DNA of 38,246 bases from Nitrospirota bacterium (GTDB lineage: Bacteria; Nitrospirota; Leptospirillia; Leptospirillales; Leptospirillaceae), in the NCBI GenBank assembly GCA_027314645.1, contig DAHVAL010000017.1, forward strand, positions 1 to 38,246, given 5' to 3'. The position numbers and the translations under genes were made by a program. The notes beneath the pieces were generated by a model. The model saw only the letters and a list, made by a program, of their open reading frames with translations. It did no database searches and was not told the origin of the DNA. Each line of letters starts with the position of its first letter. Positions within the stretch are counted from its first letter, which is position 1. Below are positions 22,802-38,246 of the stretch, one piece after another.

Positions 22802-25030
22802 TCACCTCTCCCGATGGGCCCGGATGTCCAAAGGAACGATCAGCATGGGAAAAGAGGTGAGTTTTTTGGCGATCTTTTCGGCGGTGGACTCGGTTCCGGG
22901 ATGCCAGGCGGACTGGCCCAGGAGAACCATGGCCGGACGAATCTCCCGGCAGCGCTCAATGAAGTGCTCTTCCCAGGACGGGCTCCGTTCGACCCGGAAC
23001 TCTCCGCCCAGGCGCCCGACGAGATCCTCGAGGCCATCCGGCTTCCCCCCTTCGTCCCTTTCCCCCTGCTGGATCTTGAAGGCGACAAGGCGGAGCCCCA
23101 GGCGTTCCGAGAGCCGTGCGCCCCGCCGGATGAGGGCCGCGTCTTCCGGACGGCTCGAGACCCCGATCAAAAGGATTCCGCCCCGCACCGGATACGGTCC
23201 GGCGCCCACGCCCGGGCGAAGAACCGAGGTGAAGGCGAACTCCCTGAGGGCCGTCAGGTTTTTCACCGTGAAGAAATTCTCCAGGGAATGCTCCACCTTT
23301 TCCGCCGGATAGACCTTCCCCTCCAGGAGCCGTTTTTGAAGTTCCTCGGGGGTGAGATCCACCAGGACGAGATCGTCGGCCATCGCCACCACCCCGTCGG
23401 GAACGGTCTCCCGGACGCGGATGCCGGTCTGAAGCTCGACCAGGTCGTTTAAGCTTTCGATATGCTGCACGTTGAGGGTGGAGAAGACATCGATCCCCGT
23501 GGCAAGGATCCGGGACACATCCTTGTAGCGCTTGTCCGATGCGAAGCCGGACGGGTTGGTATGGGCGAGCTCATCGATTAACACCAGCTCCGGGCGGACG
23601 GAAAGAACCGCGTCCACGTCCAGCTCTTCCAACAGAAGCCCCCGGTAGGGCACCCGTTTTCTGGGAAGGATCGGAAGCCCCCGGGCCATCGCCTCCGTCT
23701 CGCGCCGCCCGTGTGTTTCGAGATAACCGATCACGACCCGGACGCCCTCCTCCTGGCGATCTCGGGCGATCTGGAGCATTCGGTACGTTTTCCCGATGCC
23801 GGCCGCCGCCCCCAGAAACAGCGTGAATCGCCCCCGTCTCTCCCTGTCCATCGCCGGCATCCCCTCCAAAGGGCCCTGGGAGGGTTTTTCGAGGTCCGGC
23901 ATCACAAAGTCGATGGTGGGAACCAGGTTGACCTCGACATCGATCCGGGGAAAGTGGTGGAGCACCGAGCGGACGAGCGAGGAGCGCCAGGGATGGAGTG
24001 TGCCCGCATGCCCCAGGACGATCCGGGTGGTCCGGGTCCGCTCGATAAACCGCCACAGTGTCAGGGCGATGTTTCGGGTGTGGATGACCGACAGCTTTCC
24101 CCCCGCCTCGGACACCGCCTTCCGGTGATCCTCGAGAAAGGTCCGGGACGCGTGGGATCGTCGGCGCCAGAAGGGAATTTTTTCAAGATGCAGGACGAAG
24201 AGCTCTCCGCCCAGGTGCCGGGCCAGGGTGCTCCCGTAGGCCAGCAGAGTCCGGAAGGATTCCGGATGGCTTGAAACGAGGACGGTGACGCGCTCGAATA
24301 TGCCTTTCTCGCCTCCTTGGCGCGTAAGCCTGGTATCGAGGACCTTGGCCGCAAAGGTCAAGGTCATCTCCCGAAGCCGTTCCAGATTGGCTTCGGTAAA
24401 AGGGCCGGGCAGAAACCTCTCCCCCGCCTTTTTGCGGAAGACCCCTCCGGCCTGGATCCGGGCCAAAAGTTCGGCGGGGGGAATGTCGACCAGAACCAGC
24501 TCGTCTGCGCGCTGGACGAACTCCACCGGCACCGTCTCCTGGACGGGGTGTCCGAGGATCTGCGACGCGGGGCCGGAAAGAGCCGAAATCTGGATCCCGT
24601 TTAAGGTGGTGATGACGCTGATTCCCTCTTCGAGGAGATCTTCCACCATCTGCCAGAGTTTTTGACCTTCGGCCTTCCCCCCGGGATTTCCGGCCAGCTC
24701 GTCGATGAAGAGCGTGGCCGGTCGGCGGTTTAGAATGGCAGCCAGATCGAGCTCGTGGATCGGCGTTCCCGATCGGAGATGGACCGTCGGCGGGATCCGC
24801 TCAAGTCCTTCGGCGATTTCGACTAGGTCGGGACGGGATTTCTCCTCCAGCCACCCGAGAACCACGTCGACCCCCTGGCCGGAAAGCGCCCGAAGATCGA
24901 GGAGGGCGCGGCGGGTCTTTCCCACTCCAGGAGCCCACCCGAGATAGATCTTGAGGCGGCCCCGGCCGACTCCTCTGATTCCGTGAAGGTCCGGGCCTAT
25001 CAGGGATTTCTCCTCTTTCCCTCGCTCCAT
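22802..25030 (-). CDS. Tandem double KdpD sensor module protein, no histidine kinase
   Basis: 742 residues. The ATG at 25030 has GGAGGGGGCG before it; an extension to 25147 is possible but unlike protein. The protein holds the KdpD N-terminal part twice. Module 1: KdpD ATP-binding domain (about 25-230; Walker A GWAPGVGKT, Walker B LFIDEL) plus Usp-like domain (245-375). Module 2: KdpD domain (400-605; GAAAGIGKT, LVLIDELAHTNP, STLNVQHIESLND) plus Usp-like domain (615-735). Module 2 keeps the family consensus; module 1 is diverged (DELAGNPGG). KdpD senses potassium or turgor and normally continues into four membrane helices, GAF, HisKA and HATPase; all are absent, so it cannot phosphorylate KdpE by itself. 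It is divergent from kdpB, with 196 bp between the start codons, and probably acts as a soluble sensor for Kdp control or activity. Confidence 0.9.
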   Translation of the reverse strand: MERGKEEKSLIGPDLHGIRGVGRGRLKIYLGWAPGVGKTRRALLDLRALSGQGVDVVLGWLEEKSRPDLVEIAEGLERIPPTVHLRSGTPIHELDLAAILNRRPATLFIDELAGNPGGKAEGQKLWQMVEDLLEEGISVITTLNGIQISALSGPASQILGHPVQETVPVEFVQRADELVLVDIPPAELLARIQAGGVFRKKAGERFLPGPFTEANLERLREMTLTFAAKVLDTRLTRQGGEKGIFERVTVLVSSHPESFRTLLAYGSTLARHLGGELFVLHLEKIPFWRRRSHASRTFLEDHRKAVSEAGGKLSVIHTRNIALTLWRFIERTRTTRIVLGHAGTLHPWRSSLVRSVLHHFPRIDVEVNLVPTIDFVMPDLEKPSQGPLEGMPAMDRERRGRFTLFLGAAAGIGKTYRMLQIARDRQEEGVRVVIGYLETHGRRETEAMARGLPILPRKRVPYRGLLLEELDVDAVLSVRPELVLIDELAHTNPSGFASDKRYKDVSRILATGIDVFSTLNVQHIESLNDLVELQTGIRVRETVPDGVVAMADDLVLVDLTPEELQKRLLEGKVYPAEKVEHSLENFFTVKNLTALREFAFTSVLRPGVGAGPYPVRGGILLIGVSSRPEDAALIRRGARLSERLGLRLVAFKIQQGERDEGGKPDGLEDLVGRLGGEFRVERSPSWEEHFIERCREIRPAMVLLGQSAWHPGTESTAEKIAKKLTSFPMLIVPLDIRAHRER

Positions 25031-25085
25031 CGCCCCCTCCGGGCAAAGCCAAGATCCTCGTTTCCTCTCTCGCGGTCCCCCACAC

Positions 25086-25243
25086 GATGATACCTGAAAG
25101 GGAGGAGGACGTTCGACCTGGCCGGTTGGCCATCGGATCTGGTCCATCCGGCCGATTGTCCGGGGGATGGAAATGCCTTAGGATCGGGGCATGGACCGGA
25201 TCGAATGTTGACCCCGAGGATTGTCGATGAAAAAAAAGACTCC
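25086..25243 (+). repeat. kdpB promoter/start region, copy A of a 158-bp duplication
   Basis: Conserved blocks shared with 32763-32920 at nearly the same offsets: GATGATACC (offset 0), CCTGGCCGGTTGGCCATC (31 here, 30 there), CTTAGGATCGG (91 in both), and the start codon with MKKKTP (141 in both). It includes the kdpB ribosome site and its first codons, and lies in the divergent gap between kdpB and the KdpD-like gene. Confidence 0.75.
25119..25132. promoter_or_regulatory. Candidate Kdp-linked operator, copy A
   Basis: TGGCC-GGTT-GGCCA, a perfect 5+5 palindrome, conserved base for base at 32795-32808. It lies 95 bp before the kdpB ATG. It could be the site for a regulator of both transcription units. 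Confidence 0.4.
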
Positions 25244-27245
25244 TGAGTTTTCACGCTCTCTCATACTGCGGGCCCTCAAACAGTCCCTGGTGATGTTAAA
25301 CCCGTTGGGGCTGATCAAAAACCCCGTCATGTTCATTGTCGAGGTGGGAAGCGTCCTGACCGCCGGGTTCACCGTGTGGGAGCTCGCATCTCATACGGGG
25401 GCGGTGTTCTTTACGGGGTTCATTTCCTTCTGGCTCTGGGCCACGATCATTTTCGCCAATTTCTCGGAAGCCTTGGCCGAACTTCAGGGAAAGGCCCAGG
25501 CGGAAAGTCTCCGGGCGACCCGCGCCGAGACCATGGCCCGTCTCGTCGTGGGAGATGATATCCGCACGGTTCGAGGGTCGTCTTTAAAAAAATGGGATGT
25601 CTTCGTTCTCTCCGCCGGCGAGACCGTTCCCACCGACGGGGAGATCGTCGAAGGGGTGGCGAGCATCGACGAATCGGCCATCACCGGCGAATCGGCCCCC
25701 GTGATCCGGGAGGCCGGCGGCGACCGCTCGGGAGTGACCGGCGGAACCCGGATTCTTGCGGGGGACATCAAAGTCGCGGTCACCTCCAACCCGGGAGAAA
25801 CCTTCCTTGACCGGATGATCGGCCTGGTCGAAGGAGCCAAGCGGAAAAAATCCCCGAACGAGATCGCCCTCTCGATCCTTCTGATCGGGCTCACCCTGAT
25901 CTTTCTCGTGGTGGTGGTGACGCTCCCGGCCTTTTCCTCCTACGCCAAGACTCCCGTCAGTCCGACCGTGCTGATCGCCCTTCTGGTGTGTCTCATTCCG
26001 ACCACCATCGCGGGCCTTCTTCCGGCCATCGGGATCGCCGGCATCGACCGGGCCTTTGGGGCCAATGTCATCGCCAAATCGGGAAAAGCCGTGGAGGTCG
26101 CGGGGGACATCGACCTTCTCCTCCTGGACAAGACCGGGACCATCACCTTCGGAAATCGCCAGGCGGTTCAGCTGCTCCCGGCCGCGGGCCTCTCCCAGGA
26201 GACCCTGGCTCAGGCCACACGGCTCGCCTCTCTTCACGACACCACCCCGGAAGGCAAGAGCGCCCTGGCCTTGGCCGAGGGCATGCTGCCGACCCTTCCG
26301 AAGGTCGAAGAGATCGCCCCGGTTCCCTTTTCCCCCGATACCCGCATGAGCGGAGCCGATACGCCCGAAGGAGCGTTCCGGAAAGGCTCGGACGATGCCA
26401 TCGAGTCCTTCATCGGACGCCCTCTCCCTCAAGATGTCCGCCATGCCGTCACGGGCATCGGCCAATCCGGAGGAACTCCCCTCATTGTCGTCCGGGACAA
26501 AGAGGTTCTGGGAGTGATCCATTTAAAGGACGTGATCAAGCCGGGACTCCAAGAGCGGTTCGCGCGCCTCCGGAAAATGGGCGTGGAAACGGTCATGGTG
26601 ACGGGGGACAACCCGCTGACGGCCCAGGCGATCGCCCGGGAGGCGGGCCTCGACGACTTCTTCGCCCAGGCCAAGCCCGAGGACAAGATGGCCCTGATCA
26701 AAAAGGAGCAGGACAAGGGGCGGCTCGTTGCCATGAGCGGGGACGGGACCAATGATGCCCCGTCCTTGGCCCAGGCCGACGTGGCCCTGGCCATGAACTC
26801 GGGGACCCAGGCGGCCAAGGAAGCGGGAAACATGGTCGATCTCGACTCCGACCCCACCAAGATCATCGAGGTGGTGGAGATCGGCAAGCAGCTCCTGATC
26901 ACGCGGGGAGCGCTCACGACCTTTTCGGTGGCGAATGATGTCGCCAAGTACTTCGCCATTCTTCCGGCCATCTTCGTCGTGAGCTTTCCCTCGCTGGAGG
27001 TCCTCAACGTGATGAAGCTCGCCACTCCGGAAACGGCGGTCACTTCGGCGATCATCTTCAACGCCCTGATCATCCCCGCCCTGATTCCGCTCGCGCTGAA
27101 GGGGGTGGCCTACCGTCCCATCGGAGCTTCCGCCCTTTTGCGGAGGAATCTCCTGATCTATGGGCTCGGCGGGATCATCGTCCCCTTTGTCGGGATCAAA
27201 CTGATCGACATGATCCTGGTGTTCATGCTCACCCATGTCCGCTGA
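25227..27245 (+). CDS. kdpB: K+-transporting P-type ATPase, catalytic subunit KdpB
   Basis: 672 residues; the ATG at 25227 follows CGAGGA, and the TTG at 25221 is not needed. KdpB hydrolyses ATP to drive high-affinity K+ uptake by KdpFABC in the inner membrane. It has the phosphorylation loop DKTGT with Asp301, the actuator TGES (153-156; the Ser is the inhibitory phosphorylation site in E. coli), MVTGDN and [21 protein letters not shown], plus seven membrane helices. Length is normal for the family (about 680). The order is unusual: kdpB comes first, ahead of a microprotein, kdpF, kdpA and kdpC. Its promoter region occurs in a second copy before a porin gene. Confidence 0.96.
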
Positions 27246-27290: not shown

Positions 27291-27371
27291 ATGATGACGG
27301 GTCACCTGATCTTAGGCCTGGGACTCTTCGCGCTTTTTGGCCTGTACGTCCTCGCCATAGCGCGGATATAG
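27291..27371 (+). CDS. 26-residue membrane microprotein in the kdp operon
   Basis: MMTGHLILGLGLFALFGLYV, then six more residues ending ARI. Almost the whole peptide is one membrane helix with a positive C-terminal end. AAGGAAAGGAA precedes the ATG, and its TAG runs into the GGAGG of kdpF, so translation is probably coupled. It is distinct from the clear KdpF that follows, but may be a second KdpF-like lipid-facing stabiliser or a regulator of the complex. An in-frame ATG at 27264 would add nine residues. I know no named family for it. Confidence 0.55.
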   Translation: MMTGHLILGLGLFALFGLYVLAIARI

Positions 27372-27379
27372 GAGGAAAC

Positions 27380-27466
27380 ATGACGCTTTGGATCGCCCTG
27401 GGTACCCTTTCGGGATCCCTCACCCTCTATCTGTTCTGGACCCTTTTGAACGCGGAGAAACTGTGA
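27380..27466 (+). CDS. kdpF: KdpF, small stabilising subunit of the Kdp complex
   Basis: 28 residues with GGAGG 4 nt before the ATG. One helix is followed by YLFWTLLNAEKL, which matches the E. coli KdpF ending (YLVYALINAEAF) in pattern. KdpF sits against KdpA/KdpB and stabilises the complex. The kdpA start follows its stop by one base. Confidence 0.85.
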   Translation: MTLWIALGTLSGSLTLYLFWTLLNAEKL

Positions 27467-27467
27467 T

Positions 27468-29171
27468 ATGACAGCCCAAGACTGGATTCAGATCGTCCTT
27501 GTCGCCTTCCTCATCGGCGGGGCGGCCCCCTTCGTGGGCCATTACCTGGCCTGGGTCTTCGAGAGCCCCCGGATCGCCCCGGAGAGGCTCATTCACCGTC
27601 TCATCGGAACCGATCCGGACAAGGGGATGGATTGGCGGGAGTATGCCGGAGCCCTTCTCCTGTCGAACGGGATCTTCTTCGCGGCAGGGTTCGTTCTCCT
27701 CTGGGCCCAGCGGATCCTTCCATTAAACCCCCGCCACCTGTCCGCCATGAGTCCGGAGGTCACCTTCAACACGGCCGCCTCCTTCGTGACCAACACCAAT
27801 TGGCAGGCCTATGTCGGGGAATCCCAGTTGTCGAACTTCTCCCAGATGGTCCCCATCACCTTCCTGATGTTCGTGGGAGCCAACACAGGGATGGCGGCGC
27901 TGATCGCCATCATCCGGGGATTCGTCCGCTCGGGCACCCAGTCGCTCGGAAATTACTGGGACGACTTCTTCCGCTTTTTCGTCCGGGCCTTCCTCCCCGC
28001 CTGCGTCGTGATGGCCACCGTGCTTGTCTGGCAGGGCGTTCCCCAGACGCTTGCGACCTCGGTCGTGGCCCATCCCCTCGAAGGAGGAACCCAGACCCTG
28101 ATCCTGGGCCCGGTGGCCTCCATCGAGGCCGTCAAGAACCTCGGGACGAACGGGGGCGGGTTTTACAACGCCAACGCCGCCCACCCCTTCGAGAACCCGA
28201 CGCCGTTCACGAACACGCTGGAGCTTCTCGGGATGCTCACCTTCACCGCCTCGCTGCCCTTCCTCTTTGGACGCCTCTCGCGACGACCCCGCCAGGGATG
28301 GGCCCTGTTCGCGGCGATCATGATCCTGTTCGGCCTGGGCTTCGGGGCGATCGAGATTTCCGAAAAAGCCAAGAATCCCCTCTTCGCCTCCGCCGGGATC
28401 GCCCAGGCGACGACGCCCTTTCTCGATGGAGGCAACACCGAAGGAAAGGAGATGCGCCTGGGGATCACCCAGACGAGCCTGTTCTCGAACACCACCATTG
28501 CCGCCACCACCGGCGCAGTGGACGCCGCCATGGACAGCATGAACCCCCTGGCCCTCATGGTCGCCTTCTCGCATATGTGGCTCAACGAGGAGCCTGGAGG
28601 GAAGGGCGTGGGCTTTGCCGGCCTCTTGAAAGAGGTGGTGCTCGCGATCTTCATTGCCGGTCTCATGGTCGGCCGGACCCCGGAATTTCTGGGAAAGAAG
28701 CTTGAAGCGCGGGAGGTCAAGCTCGCGGCGCTCTCTCTGATCGTCACCCCTTTCCTGGTCCTTCTCCTGACCGCGCTTGGGGTGACCGCCTCCTTTGGCA
28801 CAAGCTCCATGGACAACCCCGGACCCCACGGCTTCGAGGAGGTCCTGTACGCCTATTCCTCGGGGAATGCCAACAACGGCTCCGCCATGGCCGGCCTCAA
28901 CGCGGCCACGCCGTTCTATGCCGATTCCATCGGGATCGAGATGCTGCTATCGCGGTATCTTCCAATGCTTCCCCTCCTGGCCCTGGCGGGAGCCCTGATA
29001 AGAAAACGGATCCACCCCGACACCGCCGGAACGCTTCCCACCGATACCCCGCTCTTTGTCGGGCTGCTTGTGGGCTTCATGCTGCTGGTGGGGCTTCTGA
29101 CCTTCTTTCCGGCGCTGATGCTGGGACCGATTCTGGAACAGCTGTCGATGATGCACGGAGTATCGTTCTAA
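27468..29171 (+). CDS. kdpA: K+-transporting ATPase, channel-like subunit KdpA
   Basis: 567 residues, ten hydrophobic helices. The ATG comes one base after the kdpF stop, with GGAG inside kdpF as ribosome site. KdpA binds and selects K+; it is related to TrkH/KtrB with four pore loops. Recognisable loops are TNTNWQAYVGE, GTNGGGFYNANAAHPFENP and NNGSAMAGL, carrying the selectivity-filter glycines, and the C-terminal loop with PFYADSIGIEMLLSRY. Length is usual for the family (about 557). It works with KdpB, KdpC and KdpF made from the same transcript. A small GGCCGA/TCGGCC hairpin (29176-29190) follows, before kdpC. Confidence 0.96.
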   Translation: MTAQDWIQIVLVAFLIGGAAPFVGHYLAWVFESPRIAPERLIHRLIGTDPDKGMDWREYAGALLLSNGIFFAAGFVLLWAQRILPLNPRHLSAMSPEVTFNTAASFVTNTNWQAYVGESQLSNFSQMVPITFLMFVGANTGMAALIAIIRGFVRSGTQSLGNYWDDFFRFFVRAFLPACVVMATVLVWQGVPQTLATSVVAHPLEGGTQTLILGPVASIEAVKNLGTNGGGFYNANAAHPFENPTPFTNTLELLGMLTFTASLPFLFGRLSRRPRQGWALFAAIMILFGLGFGAIEISEKAKNPLFASAGIAQATTPFLDGGNTEGKEMRLGITQTSLFSNTTIAATTGAVDAAMDSMNPLALMVAFSHMWLNEEPGGKGVGFAGLLKEVVLAIFIAGLMVGRTPEFLGKKLEAREVKLAALSLIVTPFLVLLLTALGVTASFGTSSMDNPGPHGFEEVLYAYSSGNANNGSAMAGLNAATPFYADSIGIEMLLSRYLPMLPLLALAGALIRKRIHPDTAGTLPTDTPLFVGLLVGFMLLVGLLTFFPALMLGPILEQLSMMHGVSF

Positions 29172-29262: not shown

Positions 29263-29856
29263 ATGAAAAGTCTCACGACGTCGCTTCGGGCGACGCTTCT
29301 TCTCTTGCTGATCACCGGATTTGCCTATCCTTTGGCGGTCGATGCGGTCGGGCAACTGATCTTTCCTCATCAGGCGAACGGGTCTCTGATCTTGAAAAAC
29401 GGAGTCGTGATCGGCTCCTCCCTCATCGGCCAGCCCTTCAGCCAGCCCCGATATTTTCATCCAAGGCCGTCGGCGACCCCGGACCCCACCGGCTCGGGAT
29501 CGGTTCCCTACGACGCCTCCTTCTCGTCGGCGTCGAATCTCGCCCCGTCAAACGGGGCCGAGATCAAGGCCGTCCAGTCTTTTGCCCAGGCCTACCGACG
29601 TGAAAACGGCCTCCCCCCCACCGAACCCGTCCCGGTGGATGCTGTCACCGCCTCCGGCTCTGGCCTTGATCCGGACATCAGCCTGGCCAATGCCCTCCTT
29701 CAGGTCGGCCGGGTGTCCAAAGCCCGCGCTCTCGACCCGTCGACTGTGAAGAAACTCGTGATGGAGCATGCCGAAGGACCGCAGTGGGGGCTCCTCGGAG
29801 CGCGCCATGTCAATGTTCTCGGCCTCAATCTGGCGCTCGACGCCATGAAGCCCTGA
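29263..29856 (+). CDS. kdpC: K+-transporting ATPase subunit KdpC
   Basis: 197 residues. One N-terminal membrane helix (about 9-27) precedes a periplasmic domain with GQPFSQPRYFHPRPSA, then DPDISLANALLQVGRV and the closing HVNVLGLNLALDA, all typical of KdpC. It assists ion and nucleotide affinity in the Kdp complex. It lies 91 bp after kdpA, a longer gap than elsewhere in the operon. No kdpE or kinase gene follows; the next gene is on the opposite strand. This completes kdpB-x-kdpF-kdpA-kdpC. Confidence 0.95.
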   Translation: MKSLTTSLRATLLLLLITGFAYPLAVDAVGQLIFPHQANGSLILKNGVVIGSSLIGQPFSQPRYFHPRPSATPDPTGSGSVPYDASFSSASNLAPSNGAEIKAVQSFAQAYRRENGLPPTEPVPVDAVTASGSGLDPDISLANALLQVGRVSKARALDPSTVKKLVMEHAEGPQWGLLGARHVNVLGLNLALDAMKP

Positions 29857-35065: not shown

Positions 35066-36970
35066 ATGGCCCTTTTTCACCTCTACCACGAGACGAGACG
35101 GACAATCACCCGCTTCCAGGAATCCGTGCTCCGGCGGGTCGTCGGGGTCGGCGCGCTCTTCTCCTCCGGCTATGGGGATGTCGGATCCTCGATTTATTTC
35201 GCCCTGGGAGTCACGACGGTCTATGCGGGCGGAGCCTCCTTCGTCGCCATCTTCATTGCCGGACTCTTCTTCATCGCGACCGTGCTCTCCTACGCGGAGC
35301 TGTCGTCGGCCCTTCCCGAAGCGGGAGGAGCCTCCCTCTTTTCCCAGCGGGCCTTCGGGGACGGATGGGCCTTTTTCGCGGGATGGGCCCTCCTGCTGGA
35401 CTACGTGATCACCCTGGCGATCAGCGCCTTTTCCATCGGTCCCTACCTCGGATATTTCTTTCCGATCCTGAAGACGAGCATCCAGGCCAATGTCACCTTT
35501 ACCGGGGGAATCATTCTGGTCCTGATCCTGCTCAATGTCTTCGGCCTCCGGGAGTCTTCCTGGGTGAGCCTACTCCTGGCCGGATTCGATATTCTGACCC
35601 AGTTGTCGCTCATGATCCTGGGACTGGTCTTTCTTTTTGACGTTCCCAAGCTCCTCGGCCAGTTTTCCCTCGGCACGAACCCGACCTGGCCTCATTTCCT
35701 CTACGGCATTTCGGTGGCGATGGTGGCCTACATCGGGATCGAAGCCATCAGCCAGATGGCCTCCGAGGCCCGTGATCCGGAACGATCCGTCCCCCGCGCG
35801 ATGTTTCTCACCATGGGCACGACCGTGCTTCTGTATTCGGGGATCAGCTTGGTCGCCCTCTCCGCCATGAGCCCGAAGCTCATGTCGACCGTCTGGGTCA
35901 ACGATCCGATCGCCGGCATCGCCCACTTCATCCCCCACGTCCACCAGTATCTTGGCCCGTGGGTCGCGATCCTGGGGGCCACCATCCTTACCGTCGCCGC
36001 AAACGCGGGGCTGATCGGAGTGTCGCGCATCGCCTTTTCCATGTCCCACAATTTCCTGATCCATCCGATCTTCCGACGCACAACAAAACGGTTCAAGACC
36101 CCCGTCTACTCCATCGTCTTCTTCGGCTCGCTCGGAGCCCTGGTCGTCGCCTTCTTTCCCTACCTCGAAGTTCTGGCCGATCTCTACAATTACGGGGCGA
36201 TGCTCTCCTTTTCCATGACTCATCTGGCCCTGATCGCGCTTCGCAACAAGGAGCCGGATCTTCCCCGACCCTACAGGGTTCCCTTCTCCCTCCGTCTCGG
36301 AAAATGGGAGGTTCCCCTGCCCGCCCTCTTCGGCCTCATCGGAACCGGCGGCGTCTTTCTTATGGTGCTCCTCTTCCACAAGTACGGGAGGGTGTTCGGC
36401 ACGCTCTGGATCATCGCCGGGATCGTCTACTACTATCTCTACAGGAAAAAGTCCCGCATGCCCATCCTCGAACGCGTGACGGTCACCGAAATCCCGGACC
36501 CTCCCCAGTTCGCGGCAACCCGGCACAAGACCATCCTCGTCGCCACGTCGCCCGCCGCTCCCTCTCCCGTTCTTCGGGATATCACGAAAATCGCCCGCAT
36601 CGACGGAGCGCGCCTGATCGTGGCGACGGTGCTCGAGATTCCCGCAAGCCTTCCGATCAAGGCCCCGCTGCAGGCAGAAGAGGCGCAGGCCCGAAAGACG
36701 CTCGATCTGTGCCAGGCCATCGGGGTGGAGGAAGATGTCCTGATCGACACCCTGCTGTTGAGAAGCCGCTCCGTCGGAAAGTCCCTCGCCTCCCTCACCC
36801 GTCATGAAAAAGCCGACACCCTTGTCTTCAACGACACCGACTCGGCGGTCGCCCGATCGATCGACGCCGCTCTCCGCCACGCGCGCCTCCCCGCGGCGAT
36901 CTGGAAAATTCGTCCGCTGATCGCCTCCCCCGCCCGTCCTCAAGACCCCGCCGTCGAGTCCGGCTCCTAG
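35066..36970 (+). CDS. APC-superfamily permease with C-terminal universal-stress domain
   Basis: 634 residues from the ATG at 35066 (weak ribosome site, GGGAC). About twelve membrane helices span residues 25-460. FSSGYGDVGSSIYFALG is the unwound first helix of APC carriers, and SYAELSSALPEAGGA, YIGIEAISQMASEARDPERSVPRAM and ANAGLIGVSR are family blocks. After about residue 490 comes a soluble Usp-like domain (HKTILVATSPAAPSP...), often a nucleotide-binding regulator. APC-Usp fusions are usually called amino-acid transporters, but the GD.G.SIY motif also recalls the KUP/KimA potassium carriers. It lies between the kdp-promoter-linked porin and a sensor gene, so K+ or osmolyte transport is a reasonable guess, not shown. 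Substrate unknown. Confidence 0.85.
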   Translation: MALFHLYHETRRTITRFQESVLRRVVGVGALFSSGYGDVGSSIYFALGVTTVYAGGASFVAIFIAGLFFIATVLSYAELSSALPEAGGASLFSQRAFGDGWAFFAGWALLLDYVITLAISAFSIGPYLGYFFPILKTSIQANVTFTGGIILVLILLNVFGLRESSWVSLLLAGFDILTQLSLMILGLVFLFDVPKLLGQFSLGTNPTWPHFLYGISVAMVAYIGIEAISQMASEARDPERSVPRAMFLTMGTTVLLYSGISLVALSAMSPKLMSTVWVNDPIAGIAHFIPHVHQYLGPWVAILGATILTVAANAGLIGVSRIAFSMSHNFLIHPIFRRTTKRFKTPVYSIVFFGSLGALVVAFFPYLEVLADLYNYGAMLSFSMTHLALIALRNKEPDLPRPYRVPFSLRLGKWEVPLPALFGLIGTGGVFLMVLLFHKYGRVFGTLWIIAGIVYYYLYRKKSRMPILERVTVTEIPDPPQFAATRHKTILVATSPAAPSPVLRDITKIARIDGARLIVATVLEIPASLPIKAPLQAEEAQARKTLDLCQAIGVEEDVLIDTLLLRSRSVGKSLASLTRHEKADTLVFNDTDSAVARSIDAALRHARLPAAIWKIRPLIASPARPQDPAVESGS

Positions 36971-37417: not shown

Positions 37418-38246
37418 GTGACCATTCCCGGCTTTGGGCGCGCACTCTTCGGATCCCACGAGTCGCAGAGGGTGGCTCCTCCCCTGTCCCGGCTACTCGT
37501 GACCCTGACCCTTTTGCTCTCTCTGGGCGTTTTCCTGCTCGACGCCCTGACCCCCCAGCGGCTGGTGGTGTCCATTCTCCAGGACGTTCCGATCGCGCTC
37601 ACCGGCTTGACGTTGAGACGGCGGTTCACCGTCCTGATGATGCTCCTGGGAATCCTCTCCAACATTCTGGCGGAGGCGATCAACGTCCATTCGGAAGGGG
37701 CGGTGAGCCCCATCGCCATCGCCAACCGTTTTTTCTCGGTGATCTCCTTTTTGCTCGTGGGCATCCTTGCAATGAAGATTCAGGATCACGCCCTCGAAGC
37801 AGGCAAGGTCCTCTCCGAGAACCGTCGGGCGGCCCGGGACCGAAAGGCGCGGGAACTGCTGGAAGAGCTTTCCCGCGAGTCCGATCCCCGCCATCTCTTG
37901 AACCGGCTCCCCTCAACCCTCCGGTCCCTGATCGGGGCAAAAGGGGTCATTCTGGCGGGAAGCCATGGAAACCGCTGGAGTTCTCCGATCCTTTCCGATC
38001 CTCCGTCGCTGTTTTTCTGGGGAGAGGGAGACCCTCTTCCCGGAGCCCTGGCCCTTCTTCTCGGGAAACCGTTCTTTCCACGCCCCATCTCCCAACTGAG
38101 CCTCAACCCGGTGCTCGAACAAAACGGCGCGGACGAAGGCGTGATCGCCCGCCTCAGGAGTCCGTTATCCGGTGAGACGGAGACGCCCACCCTGCTTCTC
38201 TTCGTCCTTGAGCCGCGCGAACCGGATGCCAGGGCGCTGATCGACG
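37418..38246 (+). CDS. Membrane sensor protein (four helices, GAF-like region), 3' end outside window
   Basis: The frame is open from the GTG at 37418 through the last base (276 codons). The start is uncertain because the ribosome site is weak, but the frame is closed by a stop near 37320. Four membrane helices (about residues 28-120) contain LDALTPQRLVVSILQDVPIA and a later SVISFLLVGILA, the layout of the small 4-helix input domain found in many sensor kinases and cyclases. A charged helix (about 120-150) and LSRESDPRHLLNRLPSTLRS lead into a GAF-like domain with IGAKGVIL. The output domain is missing, so kinase, GGDEF or phosphatase are all possible. 4TM plus GAF is also the order in the second half of KdpD, which makes this a candidate partner for the kinase-less KdpD at 22802. 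Confidence 0.7.
   Translation, partial: MTIPGFGRALFGSHESQRVAPPLSRLLVTLTLLLSLGVFLLDALTPQRLVVSILQDVPIALTGLTLRRRFTVLMMLLGILSNILAEAINVHSEGAVSPIAIANRFFSVISFLLVGILAMKIQDHALEAGKVLSENRRAARDRKARELLEELSRESDPRHLLNRLPSTLRSLIGAKGVILAGSHGNRWSSPILSDPPSLFFWGEGDPLPGALALLLGKPFFPRPISQLSLNPVLEQNGADEGVIARLRSPLSGETETPTLLLFVLEPREPDARALID

What the first reader, a model, noticed from the sequence alone, without database searches (positions are those of the whole stretch)
22802..25030. Tandem KdpD sensor modules without a kinase
One protein holds two complete KdpD-N plus Usp units, each with Walker motifs, the first diverged, and no transmembrane or histidine kinase part. KdpD-N alone is known in some bacteria as a c-di-AMP or nucleotide sensor, but a doubled form facing kdpB is unusual. 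It could form an intramolecular pair of ATP/c-di-AMP sites and regulate KdpFABC directly or through a separate kinase.
Basis: partly seen in the sequence, partly recalled or inferred. Interest (0 to 1): 0.7.

Follow-up and report, generated by a model that had tools for sequence, protein, structure and literature searches.

The report
Doubled potassium-pump serine-kinase module
In iron-oxidising Leptospirillum-type bacteria the short 'KdpD' protein that switches off the potassium pump Kdp in other bacteria has been doubled into one chain, with one half keeping every known catalytic residue and the other half conserved but altered, which suggests a one-piece kinase-plus-regulator that can be tested on the bench.

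Summary
One ORF (22802-25147 minus; probable start 25030) encodes two KdpD-N+Usp units, with no transmembrane or histidine-kinase part, divergent from kdpB. It is not a frameshift or assembly join. The doubled form occurs in 13 genomes of five genera of the same family, including a one-contig genome, and in none of the other KdpD-bearing genomes sampled in the phylum. Single-unit, kinase-less KdpD is already known: it is an atypical serine kinase that phosphorylates KdpB Ser162, and in Deinococcus it is driven by c-di-AMP. Both units here group with that short type, not with the phylum's full-length histidine kinases. Unit 2 keeps every mutationally tested catalytic residue. Unit 1 keeps the Walker A/B and R190 positions, but in every member lacks the adenine-stacking aromatic (Arg/His instead) and most motifs otherwise invariant in KdpD. 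The KdpB target TGES is intact and a CdaA-type diadenylate cyclase is present. A nearby membrane histidine kinase plus NarL-type regulator co-occurs with it; both are missing in the one relative that carries a full KdpD and a KdpE. Best reading: a dedicated post-translational Kdp switch with a catalytic and a regulatory half. Function is untested. New variant of a known kind.

The parts
22802..25030 (-). doubled KdpD-N/Usp protein (kdpD), probable start ATG 25030; ORF open to ATG 25147
24332..24964 (-). unit 1 KdpD domain; Walker A GWAPGVGKT, Walker B ..IDE; aromatic at E. coli W39 position replaced by Arg (24911-24913)
23903..24310 (-). unit 1 Usp-like domain (tends to evolve slower than the Usp of unit 2)
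   Evidence: not called by Pfam
23225..23839 (-). unit 2 KdpD domain, all tested atypical-serine-kinase residues present (Tyr at the W39 position, 23783-23785)
22805..23221 (-). unit 2 Usp-like domain
   Evidence: not called by Pfam
25119..25158 (.). conserved site TGGCCGNNNGGCCA-N16/17-CGGCCRATWG between the divergent kdpD and kdpB genes; once per kdpD/kdpB junction in the genus
25227..27245 (+). kdpB (ATG 25227; TTG 25221 also open); TGES target motif intact
27291..27371 (+). conserved 26-aa single-helix hydrophobic ORF between kdpB and the kdpF-like ORF
27380..27466 (+). kdpF-like 28-aa ORF (..LLNAEKL)
   Evidence: identity inferred from length, place and C-terminus only
27468..29171 (+). 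kdpA
29263..29856 (+). kdpC
37418..38246 (+). N-terminal part of the kdp-linked membrane histidine kinase, cut by the contig end; complete in relatives, followed by a NarL-type response regulator

Best explanation
The protein is a soluble, dedicated inhibitor-kinase of the Kdp potassium pump, made of a doubled short-KdpD module. Unit 2 is the catalytic atypical serine kinase: it binds ATP and phosphorylates the Ser of the TGES motif in the KdpB A domain (E. coli Ser162), stopping the pump when potassium is sufficient. Unit 1 keeps a nucleotide-binding P-loop but has lost the adenine-clamp aromatic and most family-invariant motifs around the site, and acts in cis as a regulatory half, its Usp domain probably reading a nucleotide such as c-di-AMP. 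Transcription of kdp is handled by a separate membrane histidine kinase and NarL-type regulator encoded nearby. Shown here: architecture, conservation, residues, relationship, gene neighbourhood and co-occurrence. Inferred: kinase activity, division of labour, ligand, and the role of the histidine kinase.
For: KdpD-N of E. coli and the short KdpD/Usp of D. geothermalis phosphorylate KdpB S162; kinase-less KdpD goes with absence of KdpE (PMC11018627). Unit 2 has G36, K37, T38, an aromatic at 39, D109, E110 and R190 in 13 of 13 proteins; unit 1 keeps all of these except position 39 (Arg in 13, His in 1 of 14; one T38S), and has lost H63, Q145, N151 and D152 in all, E148 in 13 of 14 and H113/N115 in 9 of 14, while these are near-invariant in unit 2 and in 16 reference KdpDs. 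KdpB TGES intact. Both units fall with Deinococcota short KdpDs, support 95/96. Purifying selection on all four domains: pairwise dN/dS 0.04-0.40 where defined. The KdpD domain evolves 1.9 times slower in unit 2 (tree length 2.59 vs 4.79; identity difference 0.15, none of 10000 resamples at or below zero). CdaA-type cyclase in own genome and a DAC gene in 19 of 21 family genomes. No KdpE orthologue: best matches 33-39% against 49% in G010, which has a full KdpD. Linked histidine kinase in 10 of 13 doubled-KdpD genomes plus a cut copy in the window; among the other eight genomes only in G019, whose kdp contig ends inside kdpB. L. ferriphilum kdpC and kdpD are induced together by NaCl (PMC6828654).
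Against: No biochemical data for any member. The c-di-AMP motif (A/G/C)XSXSX2N(Y/F) fails in both Usps, although it also fails in the Deinococcus relatives fetched here. The model has pTM 0.42, so the domain arrangement and any pseudo-dimer are unknown. Unit 1's difference from unit 2 could mean a new substrate instead of a regulatory role. Two doubled-KdpD genomes (G004, G007, both incomplete) show no linked histidine kinase, and in the window it is cut by the contig end.
Confidence: 0.6

Rival explanations
1. Both units are active serine kinases; unit 1 has been re-aimed at a second substrate (for instance the linked Usp-bearing permease, KdpA/KdpC or the histidine kinase).
For: Walker A, the Walker B DE pair and R190 are kept in unit 1 of all 14 proteins (one T38S), so nucleotide chemistry may persist. 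Unit 1 has its own invariant signature, GWAPGxGKT with Trp at position 31 in 14 of 14, and is under purifying selection.
Against: The adenine-stacking aromatic, needed together with R190 in E. coli (PMC11018627), is Arg/His; the segment after Walker B is variable even within the family.
Confidence: 0.2
2. A sensor only: the protein acts on the separate membrane histidine kinase and its NarL-type regulator, supplying in trans the N-terminal sensor half of a split KdpD, with little direct action on KdpB.
For: Co-occurrence and linkage with the histidine kinase and regulator; loss of both, with gain of a full KdpD and KdpE, in G010. Split KdpD systems are known (PMC11018627).
Against: Known split systems still keep the serine-kinase chain; unit 2 keeps all kinase residues and KdpB keeps its target.
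Confidence: 0.15
3. Ordinary short KdpD whose second copy adds dosage or avidity only, with no special role for unit 1.
For: Short KdpD/Usp is common (PMC11018627; NCBIfam NF038185); u1 and u2 as one clade, i.e. a simple internal duplication, is not rejected (p-AU 0.358).
Against: The two units are only 35% identical, form separate fully supported clades that predate the family's radiation, and differ at fixed positions, so they are not interchangeable copies.
Confidence: 0.04
4. Frameshift, truncation or assembly artefact of a normal KdpD histidine kinase.
For: None found.
Against: Same architecture, 738-800 aa, in 13 genomes of five genera, including one assembled as a single contig; full-length KdpDs of the phylum are mostly 885-965 aa open frames with a single KdpD domain.
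Confidence: 0.01

Closest known systems
Short KdpD/Usp atypical serine kinase (Deinococcus geothermalis DgKdpD; NCBIfam NF038185 KdpD-like non-kinase potassium sensor)
   Same: KdpD-N + Usp, no TM/GAF/HK, next to kdpABC, catalytic residues kept in unit 2, no KdpE orthologue, diadenylate cyclase in the genome; same clade as other Deinococcota short KdpDs in the tree.
   Different: One unit of about 370 aa there, two fused units of about 700 aa here; unit 1 has a diverged active-site surround; gene divergent from kdpB, not downstream of kdpC.
Full-length KdpD tandem serine/histidine kinase (E. coli)
   Same: KdpD-N and Usp domains; serine-kinase residues.
   Different: No TM, GAF or DHp/CA domains here; the units lie on another branch.
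S. aureus KdpD Usp domain bound to c-di-AMP (PDB 7ji4)
   Same: Fold match of a Usp domain, TM-score 0.79 on the target.
   Different: Binding motif not conserved in either Usp.
Tandem-type universal stress proteins (UspE, TTHA0350)
   Same: Two Usp domains in one chain; weak fold match spanning both.
   Different: Here each Usp is preceded by a KdpD P-loop domain; relative arrangement not reliable (pTM 0.42).

Membership tests
KdpD-N domain (PF02702) | profile match above the curated cut-off | tested here: met
   196 and 287.6 bits against 26.1
Short non-kinase KdpD as curated (NF038185) | match above the curated cut-off of 550 bits | tested here: not met
   472 bits over two stretches; the model describes a single 373-residue unit, so the doubled protein is a relative, not a member as curated
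Short KdpD atypical serine kinase | no TM/HK domains in the chain and no KdpE orthologue in the genome | tested here: met
Short KdpD atypical serine kinase | single KdpD/Usp unit | tested here: not met
   two units in one chain
Short KdpD atypical serine kinase | Walker A, Walker B DE, aromatic/Arg adenine pair | tested here: met
   unit 2: 13 of 13; in unit 1 the aromatic is missing in 14 of 14
Short KdpD atypical serine kinase | target Ser in KdpB TGES | tested here: met
   [26 protein letters not shown] in window KdpB
Short KdpD atypical serine kinase | phosphorylates KdpB | not testable with these tools
   needs biochemistry
c-di-AMP-binding KdpD Usp (Firmicutes type) | (A/G/C)XSXSX2N(Y/F) motif | tested here: not met
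   window: unit 1 L-S-H-S-H, unit 2 G-S-R-D-K at the five positions
c-di-AMP-responsive short KdpD | diadenylate cyclase in the genome | tested here: met
   DAC + CdaA_N in own genome, 19 of 21 family genomes with DAC
Full-length KdpD histidine kinase | DUF4118, HisKA, HATPase_c in the same chain | tested here: not met

The most novel reading that the evidence does not exclude
A family-wide, ancient fusion in which one KdpD serine-kinase unit became a cis-acting pseudokinase or sensor for the other, giving a single-chain kinase/regulator for a P-type pump; its Usp domains may read a nucleotide by a site other than the Firmicutes c-di-AMP motif.
Probability: 0.4. Interest if true: 0.65.

Novelty: new variant of a known kind. 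Interest (0 to 1): 0.5.

Why it matters
Serine phosphorylation by KdpD-N was described only in 2024, and how the Usp domain controls it is open. A natural protein with one catalytic-looking and one non-catalytic-looking unit in one soluble chain would let the regulatory and catalytic roles be separated by mutation. It also bears on how extreme acidophiles, thought to rely on an inside-positive, K+-based potential, shut potassium uptake.

Tried and rejected
Frameshift or assembly join: rejected by 13 genomes. Rfam elements, including c-di-AMP riboswitches, in the window: none. Hidden second KdpD or DUF4118 kinase in own genome: none. The claim that unit 1's Usp is clearly more conserved than unit 2's: tree length supports it (3.70 vs 5.59) but column resampling does not (p about 0.17), so it is only suggestive. 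Linked permease as a KimA-type potassium transporter: not supported; amino-acid transporters match better (98.5 vs 58.5 bits). The only solved KdpD-N relative found by sequence is 2r8r; phmmer with single Usp domains found nothing useful. Doublings outside the phylum were sampled only through one genome-collection scan (2 hits) and plasmid records (best 30 listed, none doubled). No paper describing a doubled KdpD was found in the held library.

Full report
What is there. The window is one whole contig (C8) of a 2.04-Mb draft genome. On its minus strand an open frame of 781 codons, 22802-25147, encodes a protein with two Pfam KdpD domains, each followed by a Usp-like domain. There is no histidine-kinase domain and no transmembrane helix. 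The gene is divergent from kdpB; the order is kdpB, a 26-aa ORF, a 28-aa kdpF-like ORF, kdpA, kdpC. These are the only KdpD domains in the genome.

It is not an artefact. The same doubled protein (738-800 aa where complete) is found in 13 genomes of the family, in all five genera, one of them assembled as a single contig of 2,559,538 bases. In 296 genomes of the phylum, two KdpD domains in one frame were seen only in this family; the other genomes with a match carry single-domain proteins, mostly 885-965 aa open frames, i.e. the length of full kinases. From my own knowledge the family is Leptospirillum and relatives; a published cluster description for that genus (kdpABC, BBP2 porin, permease, histidine kinase with a CitB-type regulator; PMC7231039) matches the neighbourhood here.

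The two units have different characters. In E. coli, KdpD G36/K37/T38, W39/R190 and D109/E110 are needed for serine phosphorylation of KdpB S162 (PMC11018627). Unit 2 has all of these in 13 of 13 proteins, with Tyr at 39, the usual residue there in other KdpDs. Unit 1 keeps all except the aromatic, which is Arg in 13 and His in 1 of 14 (one T38S); it has Trp at position 31 in 14 of 14. Around the site, H63, Q145, N151 and D152 are changed in all unit 1 sequences, E148 in 13 of 14, and H113 and N115 in 9 of 14, whereas these are near-invariant in unit 2 and in 16 reference KdpDs. Which of these touch KdpB is not known to me; that they concern the substrate is inference.

Evolution. Units 1 and 2 form two fully supported clades with similar internal order, so the doubling predates the family's radiation. 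Both lie in one group with Deinococcota short KdpDs (95/96), apart from the histidine-kinase KdpDs of the phylum. Whether u1 and u2 are each other's closest relatives is unresolved: the best tree separates them, holding them together is not rejected (p-AU 0.358), and unit 1 sits on a long stem. All four domains are under purifying selection (pairwise dN/dS 0.04-0.40 where defined), the linker much less so. The KdpD domain is much more constrained in unit 2 (tree length 2.59 against 4.79); the Usp shows the opposite trend (3.70 in unit 1, 5.59 in unit 2), which is suggestive only.

System. KdpB keeps the TGES target. Own genome has a CdaA-type diadenylate cyclase with neighbours that read as folP-, ybbR/cdaR- and glmM-like (sequence, neighbours named by eye; Pfam DAC and CdaA_N), and 19 of 21 family genomes have a DAC gene. 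KdpE orthologues are missing in the seven other genomes tested (best 33-39% identity) and present in G010 (49%). Beyond the Usp-bearing permease lies a membrane histidine kinase and a NarL-type regulator; the kinase is cut by the contig end in this window. The kinase is found in 10 of 13 doubled-KdpD genomes, counting full matches, and in one further genome (G019) whose kdp contig breaks within kdpB. G010 is a natural exchange: between the same flanking genes it has an A-B-C kdp cluster with a full-length KdpD, and the histidine kinase is absent between permease and glycosyltransferase. Most genomes here are drafts, so single absences are weak.

Control region. In the genus, the kdpD/kdpB junction holds TGGCCGNNNGGCCA-N16/17-CGGCCRATWG. 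It occurs in five genomes, six junctions, nowhere else in them, and the reversed control pattern never; it is not found in the other genera. The regulator that binds it is unknown.

Mechanism. The favoured model is that unit 2 is the kinase that inhibits KdpFABC, unit 1 a nucleotide-binding regulatory half. Every step past sequence is inference. c-di-AMP is a candidate signal by analogy with D. geothermalis KdpD (PMC11018627), but the Firmicutes motif (PMC8214093) fails in both Usps; it fails in the fetched Deinococcus proteins too, so it cannot decide. The AlphaFold model (mean pLDDT 74, pTM 0.42) supports the domain folds (2r8r, TM 0.91-0.92; 7ji4, 0.79), not their arrangement.

Verdict. Real, conserved, undescribed in the papers I could search, and best filed as a new variant of the short KdpD/Usp serine kinase.

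Noticed in passing
27291-27371 (+): A 26-28 aa single-helix hydrophobic ORF lies between kdpB and the kdpF-like ORF in all nine kdpB-kdpA gaps examined; possibly an extra small Kdp subunit.
   Followed up: partly
27380-27466 (+): kdpF-like 28-aa ORF placed between kdpB and kdpA, with kdpB first in the operon, unlike the E. coli order F-A-B-C.
   Followed up: partly
35066-36970 (+): APC-family permease with a weak C-terminal Usp match, linked to kdp across the family; closest solved relatives are amino-acid transporters, not KimA.
   Followed up: partly
25119-25158: Genus-wide operator-like site between kdpD and kdpB, one per junction.
   Followed up: partly
L058 (G010:C51): One relative has in place of kdp and the doubled kdpD a full-length KdpD cluster, a KdpE-like gene on another contig (G010:C113), and no linked histidine kinase.
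   Followed up: yes
L051, L052, L053 (G003): This draft genome appears to hold a second doubled kdpD: one complete copy and one seemingly split across two contigs; real paralogue or strain mixture not resolved.
   Followed up: no
L032: Contig labelled uncultured Merdimonas carries a full-length KdpD (898 aa) that groups with Listeria and Lactiplantibacillus.
   Followed up: no
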